This document shows positions 10,649-28,556 of a DNA stretch of 28,556 bases, piece after piece. The translations under genes were made by a program, and so were the position numbers. Under the pieces are notes generated by a model. It ran no database searches, was not told the origin of the DNA, and worked only from the letters and a program-made list of their open reading frames with translations. Position 1 is the first letter of the stretch; the number at the start of each line of letters is the position of its first letter. The DNA is from a virus: the IMG/VR virus record IMGVR_UViG_3300031951_000934, positions 1 to 28,556 of that record. One strand, written 5' to 3'.

Positions 10649-12607
10649 ATGGCAGATACTAGTGTATTTGGACGTTTACGAAAACTGTTTTCAACGAATA
10701 CAGTTGTTCGAAATGTAGGCGGTAAAAAATTAAAAGTTGCCGACACGGATAATATTCAATCCTTTGTAAATCGTAGAGGAATTGACCGTTATCATCGTGT
10801 CTATTCGTCTATGACAGGTGGATATGGGTCATCACATGGAAGATATGAAGCAGCTGCAGCATTTCAAGGTTCACGTTTGCAATTATTTCGTGATTATGAT
10901 ATGATGGATAATGACCCCATCATTTCCTCTGTGATGGACATTTATGCAGACGAGTCAACAGTAAAAGACGAGTTTGGTCAAATACTTAGTATCCGTTCAA
11001 AAAATGAACAAATCCATGATATTCTCCATAACTTATTCTATGATATATTGAATGTTGAATTCAATCTCTGGCCGTGGGTCAGAAATATGTGTAAGTATGG
11101 GGATTTCTTTTTGTTCCTTGATATTGACGAAAAATACGGGGTGGTCAATGTAATCCCACTTTCCGTATATGAAACCATCCGTATTGAAGGACAAGACCCT
11201 GGTAATCCGTTTTCAGTTAAGTTTAAGATTGAAAACGATTTCTTAGCGCTTGGTAAAAAAGATTTTGATAACTACGAAATTGCACATTTTCGTTTATTAG
11301 CAGATACAAACTTCTTACCGTATGGTAAAAGTATGGTTGAAGGAGGCCGTCGTGTTTGGAAGCAATTGCAATTGATGGAAGATGCAATGTTAATTCATCG
11401 TATCATGCGTGCTCCGGATAAACGGAAGGTATTGGTAGACATAGGTAATATTCCTACAAATGAAATAGATGCGCACATGCAACGTATTATAGACCGTATG
11501 AAAAAAACACCTTTAGTTGACCCAAAGACTGGTGACTACAATCTTCGGTATAATATGATGAACATCACAGAAGATTTTTATCTCCCCGTTAGAGGTAGAG
11601 AGTCGGGTACAGATATTCAGAATCTTCCAGGATTGAATTTTAATGCAATAGATGATATTGAGTATCTTCGTAATAAATTAATGGCGGCATTTAAGGTACC
11701 AAAGTCATTTCTTGGATACGAACAAGATACGAGTGGAAAGGCTTCTTTGGCAGCACAAGATGTTCGGTTTGCACGTACTATTGAACGTATTCAACGTATC
11801 GTAGTGTCGGAACTCACTAAGATTGCTATCATTCATTTGTATGTTCAAGGATTTACGGACGAAGACTTAATAGATTTTGAATTAGAAATGACTTCACCAT
11901 CTGTTATCTATGAGCAAGAAAAGCTCAATCTTTGGTCCGAAAAGATTGCCTTGGCAAACAATATTGCTACCAGTAAGTTCTTTTCTCGTGAGTGGATTTA
12001 CCACAATATTCTTCAGGTTTCGCAGGATGAAGCACAAAAAGAATTACAAAAGATTGAAACAGATGTTCGTAAGATGGGAACTATTACTGCGGCAGAAATG
12101 ATGGCATCACAACCACCCGCACCTCCAGCCCCGCCGCAACCTATGCCAGTAGAACCAACTGGTGGAGAACAGGCCCCGACCGAACAACCGACTGCGGAAG
12201 GAGAGCCGTCAACCGAAGAACCAACTCAAGAAGAACCACAAGATGATGTAAACGCAATATTGGCTTCACTTGGGGAACCCGAGGAAGAGTCTGAACTGGA
12301 GGGTGAATATACAGAACCAGAAGAAAAACTGTCTGAGTTTGTAAAAAACCCAGTTGGCCGTCCAAAACGATACCAAGGTAATTATAGAACAGACAAGCAT
12401 CCGTTAGGTCGTGACCCATTTGGTACAGAAGAAAACGCCGACGTATTACAAGGTAGAATCAGACGTAGAAAACCTACCCGTAAATCTCCACTATCACTAG
12501 AAAGACTTGAAATATCACATTTAATTAAACAACTAAACGATAAAAAAGAGTCAGCAACGCCACCAAGTATTTTAAATGAAGAAAACATTTTAGATATAGA
12601 AAATTAA
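10649..12607 (+). CDS. 20: Portal vertex protein (T4 gp20-like) with long C-terminal extension
   Basis: This is the dodecameric portal at one head vertex, the site of prohead initiation, the DNA entry channel and the docking point for terminase and neck. The N-terminal core has the gp20 signature (YDMMDNDPIISSVMDIYADE), LWPWVRNMCKYGDFFLFLDI and the clip/stem-region sequence KLMAAFKVPKSFLGYEQDTS. The core spans about residues 1-485. The rest, to 652, is unusual: a Pro/Glu/Thr-rich disordered stretch from ASQPPAPPAPP, an acidic piece, then a basic GRPKRYQGNYRTDKHPLGRD segment and an amphipathic end. T4 gp20 is 524 residues, so about 130 are extra. AGGGG precedes the ATG. The extension would lie on the head-interior side if topology follows T4, which is inferred. 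Confidence 0.95.
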   Translation: MADTSVFGRLRKLFSTNTVVRNVGGKKLKVADTDNIQSFVNRRGIDRYHRVYSSMTGGYGSSHGRYEAAAAFQGSRLQLFRDYDMMDNDPIISSVMDIYADESTVKDEFGQILSIRSKNEQIHDILHNLFYDILNVEFNLWPWVRNMCKYGDFFLFLDIDEKYGVVNVIPLSVYETIRIEGQDPGNPFSVKFKIENDFLALGKKDFDNYEIAHFRLLADTNFLPYGKSMVEGGRRVWKQLQLMEDAMLIHRIMRAPDKRKVLVDIGNIPTNEIDAHMQRIIDRMKKTPLVDPKTGDYNLRYNMMNITEDFYLPVRGRESGTDIQNLPGLNFNAIDDIEYLRNKLMAAFKVPKSFLGYEQDTSGKASLAAQDVRFARTIERIQRIVVSELTKIAIIHLYVQGFTDEDLIDFELEMTSPSVIYEQEKLNLWSEKIALANNIATSKFFSREWIYHNILQVSQDEAQKELQKIETDVRKMGTITAAEMMASQPPAPPAPPQPMPVEPTGGEQAPTEQPTAEGEPSTEEPTQEEPQDDVNAILASLGEPEEESELEGEYTEPEEKLSEFVKNPVGRPKRYQGNYRTDKHPLGRDPFGTEENADVLQGRIRRRKPTRKSPLSLERLEISHLIKQLNDKKESATPPSILNEENILDIEN

Positions 12608-14022: not shown

Positions 14023-14607
14023 ATGCCAAACTTATTAGTAGAATATAATGTAATTGAATACGGAAAAGAACTATTGGCAGAAGCAGCAGATATGACAAAG
14101 CCGTTAGTTCTTAAGAACGTATTGTTACAACAAGCAATAAAAGAAAACCAAAATGGACGTAGATACCCGCAACAAGTTTTACAAAGAGAAGCTGCAAAGT
14201 ATAAAGATAACTTTGTTGCACAACGTAGAGCACTAGGAGAACTAGACCACCCAGAAAGTCCCGTGGTTAATCTGAAAAATGTATGTTGTAATGTCACTGA
14301 TTTATGGTTTGATGGACCAAGAGTGATGGGAAATATTGAAATATTATCCACACCAGCCGGTAACATTGTTCGTGAACTCATCAAGAATAACATTCGTCTT
14401 GGTGTGTCTTCTCGTGGTTTGGGGTCGGTTCGTCCCATTGGCGAAGGAACTGTAGAAGTACAAGACGACTTTTCATTGATTTGTTTTGATATTGTGTCAA
14501 ATCCATCTACTTATGGTGCTTTTATCAACGAAAACAAAGAAACAGTAGTCACACCATATATTAAAATTGACTCTTTAGTTCACCAATTCTTAAGTGAAAT
14601 AAAGTAA
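14023..14607 (+). CDS. 21: Prohead core protease (T4 gp21-like, peptidase family S77)
   Basis: This serine protease sits inside the prohead and, once activated, degrades the scaffold and trims shell and internal proteins. The 194-residue product has the expected catalytic His in GELDHPES (H76) and Ser in LGVSSRGLG (S129 or S130). An upstream NQNGRRYPQQVL segment is typical of phage prohead proteases. The length is close to T4 gp21 (212). It lies one base after the preceding stop and about 1.5 kb upstream of the scaffold gene. Self-cleavage near either end is expected from T4 but no site is assigned. Substrate sites of the T4 type (L/I-x-E) are visible in gp23 (LLSE at 57-60). Confidence 0.95.
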   Translation: MPNLLVEYNVIEYGKELLAEAADMTKPLVLKNVLLQQAIKENQNGRRYPQQVLQREAAKYKDNFVAQRRALGELDHPESPVVNLKNVCCNVTDLWFDGPRVMGNIEILSTPAGNIVRELIKNNIRLGVSSRGLGSVRPIGEGTVEVQDDFSLICFDIVSNPSTYGAFINENKETVVTPYIKIDSLVHQFLSEIK

Positions 14608-14616
14608 TAGTTTACT

Positions 14617-15171
14617 ATGAATAATCCAATAGTAAAAGACTTCATCAAGTTCGTAGTAAAAGAACTCGGATTAAAATCCTTACCAAAACAAATTAAATTC
14701 GTAGATAGTGGCTACGCCGAAGAAAATTTATCATTTGGCGGATATAATCCATTAGAAGAAACTATTGTTATATGCAAAGGAGATAGACATCTTGCAGATG
14801 TTTTAAGAACGTTAGCACATGAACTAGTACATCATAAACAAAAAGAAACTGGTGTAACGTTAGATAACTCAGATGATTCCCCAACAGAACAAGAAGCAAA
14901 TGCAGTTGCTGGTATAATAATGAGAAAATTCAAAACAATTCGTCCAGAGATATTTTTGACGAACCCATCCAATACAGATAAAATTAAAACTATACTAACA
15001 GTCGTGAAGACGGGTAAGCCACAGAAAATTGATGAACAATACGTTGATGTATTTACTGCAAAATTACTAGCAACCGTTCTTCATAAATTGACACCTACAA
15101 ATAAACAAAAGTTCATCAGTGAATCTATTGACAGAATGGTTGCAGTCGCTTATAAAATGATTACTCAATAA
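14617..15171 (+). CDS. HExxH zinc-metallopeptidase-like protein
   Basis: The 184-residue product contains a zinc-protease signature: DVLRTLAHELVHHKQKETG, with HELVH at residues 68-72. Downstream acidic residues in SPTEQEANAVAGIIM (E91, E93) are candidate third zinc ligands, as in gluzincin-type enzymes. The N-terminal region (KFVVKELGLKSLPKQIKFVD) and a GDRH just before the helix suggest a compact minimal metallopeptidase fold. The last 60 residues form a separate helical part. I recall related proteins in marine T4-like phages near head genes; none has a proven substrate known to me. Its position between gp21 and gp22 suggests a second processing enzyme or a zinc-binding structural relic. 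Confidence 0.82.
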   Translation: MNNPIVKDFIKFVVKELGLKSLPKQIKFVDSGYAEENLSFGGYNPLEETIVICKGDRHLADVLRTLAHELVHHKQKETGVTLDNSDDSPTEQEANAVAGIIMRKFKTIRPEIFLTNPSNTDKIKTILTVVKTGKPQKIDEQYVDVFTAKLLATVLHKLTPTNKQKFISESIDRMVAVAYKMITQ

Positions 15172-15172
15172 T

Positions 15173-15177
15173 GGAGG
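15173..15177 (+). promoter_or_regulatory. Strong Shine-Dalgarno (GGAGG) before bS21 gene
   Basis: A perfect GGAGG starts 2 bases after the preceding stop codon and only 4 bases before the ATG. It is the closest match to the 16S anti-SD seen upstream of a small gene in this window. Confidence 0.7.
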
Positions 15178-15181
15178 TTGT

Positions 15182-15400
15182 ATGTACGTTGAAGTCAAAG
15201 GTGATAAACAGGTTGATTTAGACAGAGCATTAGCTCAATTCGTTAAGCAAGTTAAGAAAGCAGAGTTGATGGAAGATTTGAAGAAAAAGGAGTTTCATCT
15301 TAAGAAGTCCAAACGACTCCAAAAGAAACGTCAAGATGCTCTCCGCAGAAGAAAGCGTGAAGAGAGCAAAGCACAAAAGAAACAGGATAATACGTTTTAA
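15182..15400 (+). CDS. rpsU: Ribosomal protein bS21 homologue, phage-encoded
   Basis: The 72-residue basic product aligns end to end with bacterial S21, usually about 60-75 residues. MYVEVKGDKQVDLDRALAQF corresponds to the S21 start (V.V...E..D.ALR.FKR), KKAELMEDLKKKEFHLKKSK to the KAGxLxExRRREFYEKPSxK region, and the tail KRLQKKRQDALRRRKREESK to the basic C-terminus. bS21 sits near the 30S platform, close to the anti-Shine-Dalgarno, and helps initiation. Phage copies are known in pelagiphages and large phages and are proposed to replace the host protein in ribosomes. Here it lies inside the head operon, between a metallopeptidase and the scaffold, with a strong GGAGG site. Whether it enters the ribosome or the virion is unknown. 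Confidence 0.9.
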   Translation: MYVEVKGDKQVDLDRALAQFVKQVKKAELMEDLKKKEFHLKKSKRLQKKRQDALRRRKREESKAQKKQDNTF

Positions 15401-15446
15401 CTAAAAATTGATGTTTTTAAAAAAATAACAATATATATTAAATAGT

Positions 15447-15474
15447 ACACCTCTTTTGGGGTGTGATTTTGTTA
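15447..15474 (+). terminator. Hairpin with T-rich tail between bS21 and scaffold genes
   Basis: ACACCTC (15447-15453) pairs with GGGGTGT (15458-15464) through a TTTT loop, with one T-G wobble, and GATTTTGTT follows. It could be a modest Rho-independent terminator. Alternatively it could be a 5' hairpin of the scaffold/capsid transcript, because AT-rich promoter-like sequence (TTGATG at 15408, TATATT at 15434) lies just upstream. Confidence 0.5.
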
Positions 15475-15530
15475 TATCAATACGTGTTAATGACTTAAAA
15501 TAGTCATTTCTCATCAAGGAGAGAGATTTT

Positions 15531-16742
15531 ATGGCAGAAGTACAAATCACGAACAGACTTCTTAGAGAAGCCATTGCCGATGCAGAAGTCATGAGACAAA
15601 CTGCTATTGAAAACGCAAAGCTTTCATTAGAAGAAACGTTCACACCCCAAATTAAATCCATGTTAGAACGTAAGCTCCGTATGGAAGGAGAAGGCATGGA
15701 AGAAGCAACAGAAATGGACGCACATGAAGCAGAAGCAGAAGGTGGTGAAATGGCAGATTCATCAGAGATTGGTGACGCCGAAAATAAGGAACCATCTGAC
15801 GCAGCATTTGATTCTGCCGAAGACGACACCAGTGGTGAAGGTCATCACGATGGTGGAGAAGATGCATGGTACGAAGATTGGTCAGAATCAGACTTTGACC
15901 TTAAGGAAGTTATCCAAGAACTAGAAGAAGATATTCTAGCCATGGAAGGAAAGGATAAAGATGAAGAAGGTGAAGAAGAAGATAAAGATGAAAGTGAAGA
16001 TGAAGAAGGTGAAGAAGAAGATAAAGATGAAAGTGAAGAAGAATACGAAGAAGGCGAATATCCGGAAGGCGAACCAGCAGGTGATGAAGACAGTAAAAAG
16101 TCAGTTCCTGCAAAGTCTGATGATATTGGTCTTGCAAAAGAAACTTATACTTTAGAAGAATTCCTCACAGCATTAGAAGAAGCAGGATACAACTTAGAAG
16201 AAACACACGCTTCTCAGCAAGGTGTAGACCACCCAGAAATGGGGATGGCTGAAGAAAGTGATTTAAACCTAGAAGAAATTCTAGCTATGATGGAAGCCGA
16301 AGATGCACAACTTCAAGAAGAAGAAACATCTGAAAAAATGGCATCCGAAGTAAAGGCACTTCAAGAAGAGCTCGCAGAATATCGTACGGCGGTTGAGTTC
16401 CTACGAGGCAAGCTAAACGAAGTCAATCTATTGAATGCAAAATTGTTATACACCAACAAAATCTTCCGTAAGGAAGGTTTGACCAACGAACAAAAGGTCA
16501 CTATCGTAGAAAACTTTGACCGTGCAACCACAGTACGTGAAGTCAAGATGGTGTACGCAGTTCTTGCAGAATCATTGGTACCGCAACGTACAAAGGCCGT
16601 TAAGTCAGCCAAGAAAGTTGTTGCAGAAGGATTGGCAAGTAAGCCAACCCCAAGTACCGCACCAAAGACACCAGCACCAGAAGTTATCTCAGAAAACTCT
16701 GTTGCTAAGCGTTTACAACAACTCGCAGGAATAATTTCATAA
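15531..16742 (+). CDS. 22: Prohead core scaffold protein (T4 gp22-like)
   Basis: This is the major scaffold that fills the prohead and is later degraded by gp21. The 403-residue product is strongly acidic. It has an N-terminal helix (QITNRLLREAIADAEVMRQT), a central Glu/Asp-rich region with a perfect tandem duplication, and a C-terminal coiled-coil domain: EVKALQEELAEYRTAVEFLR, then NEVNLLNAKLLYTNKIFRKE, the best gp22-like signature. Residues 206-224 (YTLEEFLTALEEAGYNLEE) copy a module of the 5494-6459 protein. The C-terminus (ISENSVAKRLQQLAGIIS) resembles that protein's end. T4 gp22 is 269 residues, so the acidic insert explains the extra length. AAGGAG precedes the ATG. It lies 19 bases upstream of the major capsid gene. 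Confidence 0.92.
   Translation: MAEVQITNRLLREAIADAEVMRQTAIENAKLSLEETFTPQIKSMLERKLRMEGEGMEEATEMDAHEAEAEGGEMADSSEIGDAENKEPSDAAFDSAEDDTSGEGHHDGGEDAWYEDWSESDFDLKEVIQELEEDILAMEGKDKDEEGEEEDKDESEDEEGEEEDKDESEEEYEEGEYPEGEPAGDEDSKKSVPAKSDDIGLAKETYTLEEFLTALEEAGYNLEETHASQQGVDHPEMGMAEESDLNLEEILAMMEAEDAQLQEEETSEKMASEVKALQEELAEYRTAVEFLRGKLNEVNLLNAKLLYTNKIFRKEGLTNEQKVTIVENFDRATTVREVKMVYAVLAESLVPQRTKAVKSAKKVVAEGLASKPTPSTAPKTPAPEVISENSVAKRLQQLAGIIS
15960..16037 (+). repeat. Perfect 39-bp tandem duplication in scaffold gene
   Basis: Two adjacent identical 39-base units (15960-15998 and 15999-16037) each encode DEEGEEEDKDESE. Identity at every base points to a recent in-frame duplication in the acidic region. 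Confidence 0.92.
16146..16202 (+). repeat. Third copy of LEEW/F...LEEAGY module, within scaffold
   Basis: Residues 206-224 of the scaffold read YTLEEFLTALEEAGYNLEE, matching the two copies at 5587-5643 and 5791-5847. A weaker relative, LNLEEILAMMEAED, follows about 20 residues later. Confidence 0.8.
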
Positions 16743-16761: not shown

Positions 16762-18345
16762 ATGTCCGACGTAATGAATCTTATCAGCGAAGCCGGTTCA
16801 GCACACCGTGTTATCGTTGAACAATCCCGCCAATTGGCAGGAAAGTGGGAAAACTCAGGTCTTCTTGAAGGCTTGAAGGGAGCAGAAAAGCAAGGTATGG
16901 CAGTCATGCTTGAAAACCAAGCTTCACAACTTCTCTCAGAAAACTCATACACCAACCAAGCAGGCACCTCAGGTGAACAATGGGCAGGTGTAGCACTTCC
17001 ATTAGTCCGTAAGGTCTTCGGAAGTATCGCAGCAAAGAATTTCATATCAGTCCAACCAATGAACCTTCCTTCAGGACTTGTGTTCTACATGGACTTCAAG
17101 TACGGCACAACGGTAAACGGAAAGACCTCAGGTACCTCACTTTACGGTAACAGATTGTCATCAGCATATTCATCATTCGGTAACACAGACGAAGGTGGAT
17201 TATATGGTGCAGGTCAATTTGGCTACACAATTAATGACGCTACATTAACAGTTTCACCAGCAGCAACAACACAATCAGTTTCATTCTCAGATGTTAACTA
17301 CAACCAAACTTACGTAGCAACTGGTTCATACCGTAAGTTCACCGTAACTGGTTCAGCATTCACGAACCCTGACTTCCTTGCAGTACGTACATTCGTACCA
17401 TCAGGTTCAGGTGTGAACTTCGGAACAAAGGTTGTTCCAGAATTCACCAAGTTCAACGTAGCAACTGGTAACGTAGAATTCATCGTAGAAACAACTGCAA
17501 ATGCAACAATTGAAACGATAACGTATGTCAAGCAACCAGTTGACACTGCACGTGGTGACTTCGAAGATAACGGTACAGTAACCGACATTGGAATTCCACA
17601 AATTGATTTGGAACTCAAGTCAGAAACAATCGTTGCGAAGACCCGTAAGTTGAAGGCAGTCTGGTCACCAGAACTTGCTCAAGATTTAAATGCATATCAC
17701 TCAATTGATGCAGAAGCAGAACTCACCTCAATGTTGAGTGACTATATTTCAACGGAAATTGACCTTGAAATCCTTGATATGTTAATTGCAGCAGCACCAA
17801 GTATCACAACCGAATACTGGTCAGCAGAAATCGGAAGTGTATGGAACGGTTCATCATTTGCAGCAGGTTCATTCCAAGGTACAGCATGGACTAACATGAC
17901 CTGGTTCCAAACACTTGGCCAGAAGATGCAAAAAGTCAGTAACAAGATTCATCAATTAACGATGCGTGGTGGTGCAAACTTCGCAGTTGTTTCACCAACC
18001 GTTGCAACAATCCTTGAAACCATCCCAGGCTTCCTTGCTGGAACTGATGGTGACAAGATGGAATTTGCAGGTGGCGTAACCAAGGTTGGTTCATTCCAAA
18101 ACCGTTTCACCATCTACAAGAACCCATACATGAAGGAAAACATCGTATTGATGGGCTTCCGTGGAAATAACTTCCTCGAAACTGGTGCAGTATATGCTCC
18201 ATACATCCCACTTATCATGACACCGTTGGTCTATGACCCAACGAACTTCACACCACGCCGTGGCGTGATGACCCGTTATGCTAAGAAGGTTGTACGTCCT
18301 GAATTCTTCGGTAAGATTCTTATCGACAAGCTCAACCTCGTCTAA
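16762..18345 (+). CDS. 23: Major capsid protein (T4 gp23-like)
   Basis: This is the HK97-fold shell protein of the head. The 527-residue product is close to T4 gp23 (521). Recognisable parts are LPLVRKVFGSIAAKNFISVQ (start of the mature core), PSGLVFYMDFKYGT, LKAVWSPELAQDLNAYHSID and the C-terminal FGKILIDKLNLV. The first 60 residues are the expected propeptide; ENQASQLLSE ends at E60 and fits the T4 gp21 L-x-E cleavage rule, giving a mature start NSYTNQAG. Codon use is distinctive: lysine is nearly always AAG, serine mostly TCA, and Asn/Phe/Tyr tend to end in C, as expected of the most highly expressed gene. AGGAG precedes the ATG, and a strong terminator follows. Confidence 0.97.
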   Translation: MSDVMNLISEAGSAHRVIVEQSRQLAGKWENSGLLEGLKGAEKQGMAVMLENQASQLLSENSYTNQAGTSGEQWAGVALPLVRKVFGSIAAKNFISVQPMNLPSGLVFYMDFKYGTTVNGKTSGTSLYGNRLSSAYSSFGNTDEGGLYGAGQFGYTINDATLTVSPAATTQSVSFSDVNYNQTYVATGSYRKFTVTGSAFTNPDFLAVRTFVPSGSGVNFGTKVVPEFTKFNVATGNVEFIVETTANATIETITYVKQPVDTARGDFEDNGTVTDIGIPQIDLELKSETIVAKTRKLKAVWSPELAQDLNAYHSIDAEAELTSMLSDYISTEIDLEILDMLIAAAPSITTEYWSAEIGSVWNGSSFAAGSFQGTAWTNMTWFQTLGQKMQKVSNKIHQLTMRGGANFAVVSPTVATILETIPGFLAGTDGDKMEFAGGVTKVGSFQNRFTIYKNPYMKENIVLMGFRGNNFLETGAVYAPYIPLIMTPLVYDPTNFTPRRGVMTRYAKKVVRPEFFGKILIDKLNLV

Positions 18346-26168: not shown

Positions 26169-28556
26169 ATGACCTTGGTTCCAGGAGTACCGAACATCCG
26201 AGTCATTATACGAGAAGCAAACGATGAAAACTTAACGGTAGATGTACCAAACATCTCCGTAAAAATTCTTGATAGTGACCAGTACAATGTAAATATAACT
26301 CCAAACTCCGTTACAACATTGCGTACGGGGTCGTTTAACACATACGCAGATTTTGCAAACATTGCAAACACCGCATCATACGCATTAACGGCATTATCAT
26401 TATCAGGCTCAATTGATTCTGCTTCATATGCAAGTTTTGCATTAACTGCATCATATGTTAGTGGCGCAGCAAGTACATGGGATGACATATCAAATAAACC
26501 GAATGGATTGGTATCGTCTTCTGTACAAGTAATAAACTATAATATATTTGCCACCACGGGGTCAAACACATTTGTCGGTAACCAGATAATCACAGGTTCA
26601 CTTATTGTATCAGGTTCATCTACTCTTACAAATATAGGACCAGCAATATTTAGTGGTTCAATTAACGTCACAGAAGGAATTACCGGGTCGTTGTTTGGTA
26701 CAAGTAGTTGGTCTATTAACGCGGTATCTGCCTCGTATGCAATTACTCCCTCAGGTACATCGGGTACCAGTGGAATTGCTGGTAGTTCTGGTACAAGCGG
26801 TAATAGTGGCTCTTCTGGTACATCAGGTACGACAGGTTCTAGTGGTTCATCAGGAACATCGGGAAATACTGGTTCATCAGGAACATCGGGGGCAACCGGT
26901 TCAAGTGGGACTACAGGCTCGTCAGGAACATCAGGTAGTTCTGGCTCATCGGGTACCAGTGGAGTTACTGGCAGTTCTGGTACTTCTGGTATAAATGGTT
27001 CAAACGGTACTTCGGGTAATAATGGTTCTTCTGGCACTTCTGGGCAGAATGGAAGTGCCGGTACTAGTGGAACTAGTGCAGACGTAATTATTAGTGGAAG
27101 TGCTCCAAGTAATCCAACTACAGGGTCTTTGTGGTACGATGATACCACAGGTAAAACATATATTTATTATGTTAGTCAATCCGTGGGGTCGTGGGTACTT
27201 CAATCAGACCCAACATTTGACCCAGGTCCAACATTACAAGATTTACAAGATGTAACAGATTTAGGTGCAACAACGACAAATGCTATTATAATAGCAAATA
27301 CAACCACCGCAGCAAATACTGGTTCTGGTGCGTTAATTGTTTCCGGTGGATTGGGTGTAAAACAAAACATATACGCTAGTAATATAATTGCCGTGAATAC
27401 AATAACTGCGACGGGGTTTACCGCGTCAGCAGGATATTTTGGTACCGCAAGTTGGGCACAAAATGCGGTTACTGCTTCATACGCCTTAAATGCAAGTGCG
27501 GGTGGAAGTGGTACGGCAGGTAGTTCAGGTACATCGGGCCAAACGGGGTCATCGGGTACGGCCGGGTCGGCAGGAAGTTCAGGGACTAGCGGACAGAATG
27601 GAAGTTCTGGTACATCAGGTCAAAGTGGGTCATCGGGTACGAGTGGTAGTTCTGGTTCATCAGGAACATCCGGCTCAACAGGGTCATCTGGAACATCGGG
27701 GTCATCCGGAACTAGAGGTTCAAGTGGAACATCAGGAAGTTCAGGTACATCAGGAAATAATGGTAGCTCGGGAACATCGGGTTCTACTGGTAGTTCTGGA
27801 ACTTCTGGAAACACTGGTTCATCCGGAACAAGTGGAAACACTGGTTCTTCTGGTACTTCTGGTCAGAACGGAAGTAGTGGAACTGCGGGGTCGTCTGGTA
27901 CAGCAGGTTCATCAGGTACGCAAGGCTCTTCAGGAACTAGTGGAAACTCTGGAAGTTCAGGTACATCGGGTCAAACAGGAAGCAGTGGAACATCTGGTAT
28001 AACCGGGTCATCGGGTACGTCTGGTATAACTGGCTCTTCTGGTACTAGCGGAAACACGGGCTCGTCGGGTACATCAGGTAACACGGGCTCATCAGGAACA
28101 TCAGGAAACACTGGTTCATCGGGAACATCAGGAAACACTGGTTCATCGGGAACATCGGGTTCTACAGGTAGTTCTGGTACATCTGGAAACACAGGTTCAT
28201 CGGGAACATCAGGTAACACCGGCTCCTCTGGAACAAGTGGGTCTACGGGTAGTAGTGGTACATCAGGTTTAACAGGAAGTTCTGGTACTTCTGGAGTATC
28301 TGGTAGTAGTGGAAGTTCAGGTACATCTGGGTCGTCTGGTACTGCAGGACTCACGGGTAGTTCTGGTACATCAGGTAACACGGGTTCTTCCGGTACGTCT
28401 GGACAGAATGGAAGTTCAGGTACATCGGGTGTATCTGGTAGTAGTGGAACATCCGGTTCTACCGGCTCATCGGGTACTTCAGGAAGTTCTGGTACTTCAG
28501 GACAAACAGGTAGTTCAGGTACTAGTGGTAATACGGGTTCATCTGGAACCAGCGGT
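26169..28556 (+). CDS. Collagen-like tail fibre protein (truncated at window edge)
   Basis: An open frame starts at ATG 26169, three bases after the previous stop, and runs without a stop to the last base (796 codons so far). The N-terminal part (about residues 1-190) is Ser/Ala/Thr-rich with SGSIDSASYASFALTASYVS and ITGSLFGTSSWSINAVSASY, motifs frequent in phage fibres. A first Gly-X-Y block covers DNA 26754-27077. A globular linker follows (27078-27500, with GSLWYDDTTGKTYIYYV and a second GTASWAQNAVTASYALNAS). A second block runs from 27501 to the edge. The protein is proline-poor in these blocks; GSS, GTS and GNT triplets dominate. It is expected to form a trimeric collagen-like shaft for receptor contact. 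The distal receptor-binding tip and any chaperone are outside the window. Confidence 0.88.
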   Translation, partial: MTLVPGVPNIRVIIREANDENLTVDVPNISVKILDSDQYNVNITPNSVTTLRTGSFNTYADFANIANTASYALTALSLSGSIDSASYASFALTASYVSGAASTWDDISNKPNGLVSSSVQVINYNIFATTGSNTFVGNQIITGSLIVSGSSTLTNIGPAIFSGSINVTEGITGSLFGTSSWSINAVSASYAITPSGTSGTSGIAGSSGTSGNSGSSGTSGTTGSSGSSGTSGNTGSSGTSGATGSSGTTGSSGTSGSSGSSGTSGVTGSSGTSGINGSNGTSGNNGSSGTSGQNGSAGTSGTSADVIISGSAPSNPTTGSLWYDDTTGKTYIYYVSQSVGSWVLQSDPTFDPGPTLQDLQDVTDLGATTTNAIIIANTTTAANTGSGALIVSGGLGVKQNIYASNIIAVNTITATGFTASAGYFGTASWAQNAVTASYALNASAGGSGTAGSSGTSGQTGSSGTAGSAGSSGTSGQNGSSGTSGQSGSSGTSGSSGSSGTSGSTGSSGTSGSSGTRGSSGTSGSSGTSGNNGSSGTSGSTGSSGTSGNTGSSGTSGNTGSSGTSGQNGSSGTAGSSGTAGSSGTQGSSGTSGNSGSSGTSGQTGSSGTSGITGSSGTSGITGSSGTSGNTGSSGTSGNTGSSGTSGNTGSSGTSGNTGSSGTSGSTGSSGTSGNTGSSGTSGNTGSSGTSGSTGSSGTSGLTGSSGTSGVSGSSGSSGTSGSSGTAGLTGSSGTSGNTGSSGTSGQNGSSGTSGVSGSSGTSGSTGSSGTSGSSGTSGQTGSSGTSGNTGSSGTSG
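26754..27077 (+). repeat. Gly-X-Y collagen-like block 1
   Basis: There are 108 codons in strict Gly-X-Y register, mostly GSS, GTS, GNT and GNN-type triplets with no proline. The block is flanked by non-repetitive fibre sequence. Confidence 0.9.
27501..28556 (+). repeat. Gly-X-Y collagen-like block 2 (continues past window)
   Basis: About 117 Gly-X-Y triplets are visible, with a common nine-residue period G-T-S-G-x-x-G-S-S. Synonymous codons vary freely from unit to unit (GGT/GGA/GGC/GGG; TCA/TCT/TCG/AGT/AGC). The opposite strand therefore shows spurious Pro/Val/Asp/Glu-rich open frames. Confidence 0.92.

What the first reader, a model, noticed from the sequence alone, without database searches (positions are those of the whole stretch)
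15182..15400. Ribosomal protein bS21 homologue inside the head-assembly operon
A full-length S21-like gene with a near-ideal GGAGG site lies between the prohead protease/metallopeptidase pair and the scaffold. bS21 sits by the anti-Shine-Dalgarno on the 30S, so a phage copy could bias initiation toward phage late messages. Its placement among late head genes, rather than early takeover genes, suggests use during the capsid synthesis peak.
Basis: partly seen in the sequence, partly recalled or inferred. Interest (0 to 1): 0.7.

Follow-up and report, generated by a model that had tools for sequence, protein, structure and literature searches.

The report
Phage ribosomal protein bS21 gene
This large aquatic virus of bacteria carries its own copy of a small ribosome part, bS21, beside its shell-building genes; such copies are already known, but related viruses turn out to keep this one almost only when their genes use the Shine-Dalgarno ribosome-binding signal, which gives a testable clue to its function.

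Summary
Window 15182-15400 encodes a genuine 72-residue bS21 (Pfam PF01165 and NCBIfam S21p, both over cut-off), preceded by GGAGG 4 nt from the ATG, a motif kept in 57 of 57 close relatives. It lies between a protease/metalloprotease pair and the scaffold of a T4-like head module.

The phenomenon is published: Chen 2022 (PMC9723584) reports phage bS21 beside head genes, expressed late. This is a new member of a known kind, differing in strand (same as the head genes), place (directly before the scaffold) and residue 54 (Arg, not aromatic).

New here: among 64 relatives with a readable slot, 43 of 46 with bS21 use Shine-Dalgarno (SD) sequences; 0 of 18 without it do. The tree holds only two changes of each trait, so independent evidence is thin. 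Loci resembling Chen's phages carry Tyr54 and use no SDs.

Best reading: phage bS21 replaces host bS21 and supports SD-dependent initiation on phage mRNAs (inferred). SDs occur genome-wide, so a bias to late messages alone is not supported. The host is unresolved; signal peptides of phage proteins hint at Bacteroidota or a relative.

The parts
15182..15400 (+). bS21 (rpsU-like) gene, 72 aa
   Evidence: PF01165 and TIGR00030 over cut-off; 60 relatives
15173..15177 (+). GGAGG Shine-Dalgarno motif of bS21, 4 nt before the ATG; best pairing -10.2 kcal/mol
   Evidence: conserved in 57/57 close relatives
14617..15171 (+). metalloprotease-like gene (HELVH motif) directly upstream
   Evidence: phrog_87 E 3.7e-6; weak Pfam matches; position conserved in the window's wider clade
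14023..14607 (+). prohead core protease (gp21-like)
   Evidence: PF03420 E 3.1e-27; phrog_207
15446..15465 (+). terminator-like hairpin between bS21 and the scaffold, invariant stem
15489..15508 (+). covarying hairpin in the leader of the scaffold gene
15531..16742 (+). scaffold-position gene (gp22-like by place)
   Evidence: position before MCP and homologues in relatives; no family match
16762..18345 (+). major capsid protein Gp23
   Evidence: PF07068 E 4.9e-74
10649..12607 (+). portal protein (gp20-like)
   Evidence: PF07230 E 1e-65

Best explanation
The gene encodes a working ribosomal protein bS21 of a large T4-like phage. Lying at the end of the portal-protease run, it is most likely made with the head proteins (inferred). 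The protein exchanges onto host 30S subunits in place of host bS21 (inferred here; shown elsewhere for a pelagiphage bS21 in E. coli). It has the ordinary helical layout with a basic C-terminal helix and Arg, not Tyr, at the position which in Bacteroidia helps to hide the anti-SD. It should therefore leave the anti-SD free and support initiation on SD-bearing phage mRNAs (inferred). Shown here: identity, conserved place, strong constraint, a strong SD on its own gene, and co-occurrence with SD use across relatives.
For: Family matches. Place before the scaffold on the same strand kept in bS21+ relatives; same general slot in the isolate Mel-JY01, annotated RpsU. Lowest dN/dS of the genes compared. 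Slot bS21 and SD use: 43 of 46 with bS21 are SD users, 0 of 18 without; no bS21 in the whole immuto record (160 kb) or in SD-avoiding records of 132 and 166 kb. Residue 54 is non-aromatic in 39 of 44 listed bS21 of SD-using phages and Tyr in the six distinct bS21 of SD-free loci. Literature: phage bS21 enters E. coli ribosomes (PMC6375957); in Flavobacterium bS21 with Tyr54 helps to hide the anti-SD and ribosomes lacking bS21 favour SD mRNAs (PMC9976891; PMC9723584).
Against: Only two changes of each trait on the tree, so the test of independent pairs has no power. L118 has bS21 without SD use; five SD-using phages have Tyr at position 54. A shared host could explain both traits. The SD-free loci were found with a Tyr54-bearing query, which may bias that class. 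Pelagiphage bS21 left E. coli ribosomes with about 5% activity in vitro (PMC6375957). Starts were taken as the first ATG, not from a gene caller.
Confidence: 0.5

Rival explanations
1. Host tracking only: bS21 and SD use are both set by the host. Phages of SD-using bacteria keep SDs and happen to keep an old bS21, and phages that moved to SD-blind Bacteroidia lost both; bS21 acts as a plain replacement part that keeps ribosomes complete late in infection, with no choice among mRNAs.
For: SDs occur genome-wide, in early regions too, as expected if the host ribosome reads SDs anyway; the SD-avoiding clade includes a phage of Flavobacterium; only two coincident changes on the tree.
Against: Does not explain why bS21 in particular is so constrained and lost along with SDs; SD-free phages resembling Chen's do carry a bS21, of another class.
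Confidence: 0.3
2. Ribosome conversion: the host is SD-blind Bacteroidota and the phage bS21, lacking Tyr54, uncovers the anti-SD so that SD-bearing phage mRNAs are favoured over SD-less host mRNAs.
For: Exported proteins of relatives of the window are cut at A|Q, the Bacteroidetes Q-rule (PMC5837995); Arg54 in the window bS21; bS21-less Flavobacterium ribosomes prefer SD mRNAs (PMC9976891).
Against: Early genes carry SDs too; Q-rule signals also occur outside Bacteroidia, e.g. Ignavibacterium, whose class uses SDs to some extent (PMC10783764); strong TTGACA promoters in the window's clade; host not identified; five SD-using phages have Tyr54.
Confidence: 0.12
3. Packaged or extraribosomal role: bS21 is a core protein of the prohead or is injected with the DNA, as its place beside protease and scaffold may suggest.
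For: Place between protease and scaffold, where T4 has nothing; injection was raised as a possibility by Chen 2022.
Against: The ribosomal protein family profile is intact; other phages carry bS21 far from the head genes.
Confidence: 0.06

Closest known systems
bS21-encoding Bacteroidetes myoviruses, Chen et al. 2022 (PMC9723584)
   Same: bS21 within a few genes of TerL, portal, protease and MCP; large aquatic myoviruses; late expression proposed
   Different: Chen's bS21 is on the opposite strand and has an aromatic residue 54; loci found here that match this are SD-free. The window's bS21 is on the same strand, directly before the scaffold, with Arg54, in an SD-using phage
Pelagiphage bS21 (HTVC008M, Mizuno et al. 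2019, PMC6375957; Mosig EXVC030M)
   Same: bS21 family in T4-like aquatic phages
   Different: in Mosig it lies by clamp and Hsp20 genes, not head genes
Microcystis phage Mel-JY01 RpsU (PP395634)
   Same: bS21 between prohead protease and scaffold-position gene, same strand, SD-using phage
   Different: only about 32% identical; no metalloprotease next to it, and two further genes before the scaffold
Flavobacterium johnsoniae rpsU autoregulation (PMC9976891)
   Same: bS21 gene with a strong SD
   Different: there an extended SD of 9-13 bp stands out in an SD-free genome; here GGAGGU is a stronger form of a signal that most genes carry

Membership tests
Ribosomal protein bS21 (PF01165 / TIGR00030) | profile match above curated cut-off over nearly the full length | tested here: met
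Ribosomal protein bS21 (PF01165 / TIGR00030) | helical layout with a long basic C-terminal helix | tested here: met
   AlphaFold2 helices 10-26, 29-39, 44-71, mean pLDDT 83; Foldseek against the PDB gave no useful match for this small extended protein
Ribosomal protein bS21 (PF01165 / TIGR00030) | incorporation into the 30S subunit | not testable with these tools
   needs ribosome mass spectrometry
Chen-type Bacteroidetes bS21 phages | bS21 on the strand opposite to the head genes | tested here: not met
   same strand in the window and its relatives
Chen-type Bacteroidetes bS21 phages | aromatic residue at position 54 | tested here: not met
   Arg in the window
Chen-type Bacteroidetes bS21 phages | host in Bacteroidetes | tested here: inconclusive
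   A|Q signal peptides in relatives; genome scans found nothing
Bacteroidia-type autoregulated rpsU | exceptional SD (below -13 kcal/mol) in a genome otherwise without SDs | tested here: not met
   -10.2 kcal/mol and most genes carry SDs

The most novel reading that the evidence does not exclude
Phages of this group infect SD-blind Bacteroidota and use a bS21 lacking Tyr54 to uncover the anti-SD, switching host ribosomes to an SD-dependent reading mode that phage mRNAs can use and most host mRNAs cannot.
Probability: 0.12. Interest if true: 0.9.

Novelty: new member of a known kind. Interest (0 to 1): 0.48.

Why it matters
bS21 is the ribosomal protein most often found in phages, and why they carry it is unproved. 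The co-occurrence with SD use, and the contrast between SD-using phages (mostly non-aromatic residue 54) and SD-free phages (Tyr54), turns the general idea of biased initiation into a concrete prediction: phage bS21 should favour or disfavour SD-anti-SD pairing according to its class. This can be tested with reporters in laboratory Flavobacterium and E. coli.

Tried and rejected
Generic Lys/Arg helix: rejected by two curated profiles. Named phages by DNA or by the bS21 itself: no match; relatives were reached through MCP. bS21 in immuto's slot: the 75-aa gene there is unrelated. Metalloprotease as an obligate partner of bS21 (McNutt 2023 speculated about a phage protease against host bS21): it is confined to the window's wider clade and many bS21+ phages lack it. 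Tyr54 as a strict predictor of SD use: five exceptions. Late-only SD use: rejected. No tree of phage bS21 against bacterial bS21 could be made, because no bacterial set was obtained. The IMPDH gene of a 98.8-kb relative has many viral homologues and was not taken further as a host marker. TAnnTTTG promoters were not enriched, not even in the Flavobacterium phage, so that test says little. Structure search in the PDB was uninformative. Rfam: nothing in the window.

Full report
Observation. The ORF at 15182-15400 (+, 72 aa) is bS21: PF01165 E 9.4e-9 (35.3 bits, cut-off 27), TIGR00030 S21p 31.2 bits (cut-off 28.95); PDB sequence matches are almost all bS21 chains. An AlphaFold2 model has helices 10-26, 29-39 and 44-71 (mean pLDDT 83). 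The window is a 28.6-kb virus record with the T4-like order TerL, portal, protease, metalloprotease-like gene, bS21, scaffold, MCP, sheath. In T4, gp21 is followed directly by gp22, so bS21 and the metalloprotease fill a slot that is empty in T4.

Conservation. One scan found 60 viral loci with the same protein in the same gene order. bS21 is the most constrained gene compared (median dN/dS 0.033; protease 0.059, portal 0.082, metalloprotease 0.085; the values for MCP and scaffold, 0.285 and 0.30, are less reliable), and GGAGG precedes it in 57 of 57 close relatives. A second scan used the protease, so as not to choose on bS21. Of 50 records then searched for PF01165, 36 match; 39 of the 50 came from the protease scan, and 27 of these 39 have bS21. 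Where bS21 was found by profile in these loci it lies on the strand of the head genes and, with few exceptions, directly before the scaffold. In the isolate Mel-JY01 two further genes stand between. Flavobacterium phage immuto lacks bS21 in its whole genome.

Shine-Dalgarno use. For each locus, pairing to the 16S tail just upstream of first-ATG starts was compared with control positions further upstream. In the window 70% of genes pass, against 13% of control positions. Of 64 loci with a readable slot, 43 of 46 with bS21 are SD users and 0 of 18 without it are (Fisher p 3.7e-13, which ignores relatedness). On the tree each trait changes twice and the changes go together, too few for a test (sign test median p 0.5). 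Loci with bS21 but no clear SD use are L093, L118 and L141, the last with six genes only. Some of the bS21+ loci came from the bS21 scan, so the proportion with bS21 is not a survey figure. In the 21 read, SD use is at or near background, the bS21 gene itself has no SD, residue 54 is Tyr, and in 20 the neighbouring head genes lie on the opposite strand, as Chen describes. Because the query had Tyr54, that class may be favoured. Among the listed bS21 of SD-using phages, 39 of 44 have a non-aromatic residue there and 5 have Tyr. SD use in bS21+ phages runs through the whole genome, early regions included.

Host. A 98.8-kb relative (G004), G003 and G005 encode exported proteins cut at A|Q, the Bacteroidetes Q-rule (PMC5837995); so do two phages of a second bS21+ group, G037 and G039. 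The stricter script missed short signal peptides that are plain. The Q-rule is also high in Ignavibacterium album, and Ignavibacteria use SDs to some extent (PMC10783764). Promoters in the window's clade are of the type TTGACA-N17-TATATTT. Genome scans gave no host. The host class is therefore open, and with it the choice between a bS21 that serves an SD-reading ribosome and one that converts an SD-blind one.

Mechanism. From the literature: phage bS21 can enter E. coli ribosomes, with strongly impaired translation in vitro (PMC6375957); in Flavobacterium, bS21 with Tyr54 helps to hide the anti-SD, and ribosomes without bS21 prefer SD mRNAs (PMC9976891; PMC9723584). With the data above I infer that the window's bS21 replaces the host protein and supports SD-dependent initiation on phage mRNAs. 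Incorporation, timing and selectivity are inferred, not shown. A bias limited to late mRNAs is not supported.

Known work. Phage bS21 beside head genes, and its late expression, were described by Chen 2022, with a survey of 900 published phages of which 388 have a structural gene within ten genes of bS21. The window is a new member of that kind, with differences in strand, place, residue 54 and SD use. The searches run here found no report of the association between bS21 and SD use; the library holds open-licence papers only.

In passing. A covarying hairpin lies about 25 nt before the scaffold ATG. Its signature (loop ending AAT, closing U-A) is found in 43 of 63 diverse relatives, with and without bS21, against 0 of 63 shuffled leaders and 0-6 loci upstream of other head genes. 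Pair counts show 59 cells changed on both sides against 20.8 in shuffles; these sequences were chosen for pairing, so the percentage paired is biased, while the loop signature was noticed afterwards and not used in the search. No Rfam family matches.

Noticed in passing
window 15489-15508, and upstream of the scaffold gene in many loci: Covarying 7-bp hairpin with a 5-7 nt loop ending AAT about 25 nt before the scaffold ATG; signature in 43/63 diverse relatives vs 0/63 shuffled; no Rfam match. Possible translational operator of the scaffold gene.
   Followed up: partly
window 15446-15465: Terminator-like hairpin TACACCTC-loop-GGGGTGTG with an invariant stem in 15 relatives; its 5' arm resembles the anti-SD (CACCTC).
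   Followed up: partly
window 14617-15171: Metalloprotease-like gene (HELVH) ending just before the bS21 SD, confined to the window's wider clade; McNutt 2023 speculated about a phage protease against host bS21.
   Followed up: partly
L087, L097, L108, L111, L113, L116, L122, L124, L125, L127: A second group of bS21+ phages has bS21 genes without an SD although the rest of the genome uses SDs; several of the proteins have N-terminal extensions.
   Followed up: no
L145-L149 (98.8-kb relative G004): Encodes exported proteins with A|Q signal peptides, an adenylosuccinate synthetase, an IMPDH/GMP reductase and 10 tRNAs.
   Followed up: no
window 26169-28556: Long protein of SSGTSG-type repeats running off the window end, perhaps a tail fibre.
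   Followed up: no
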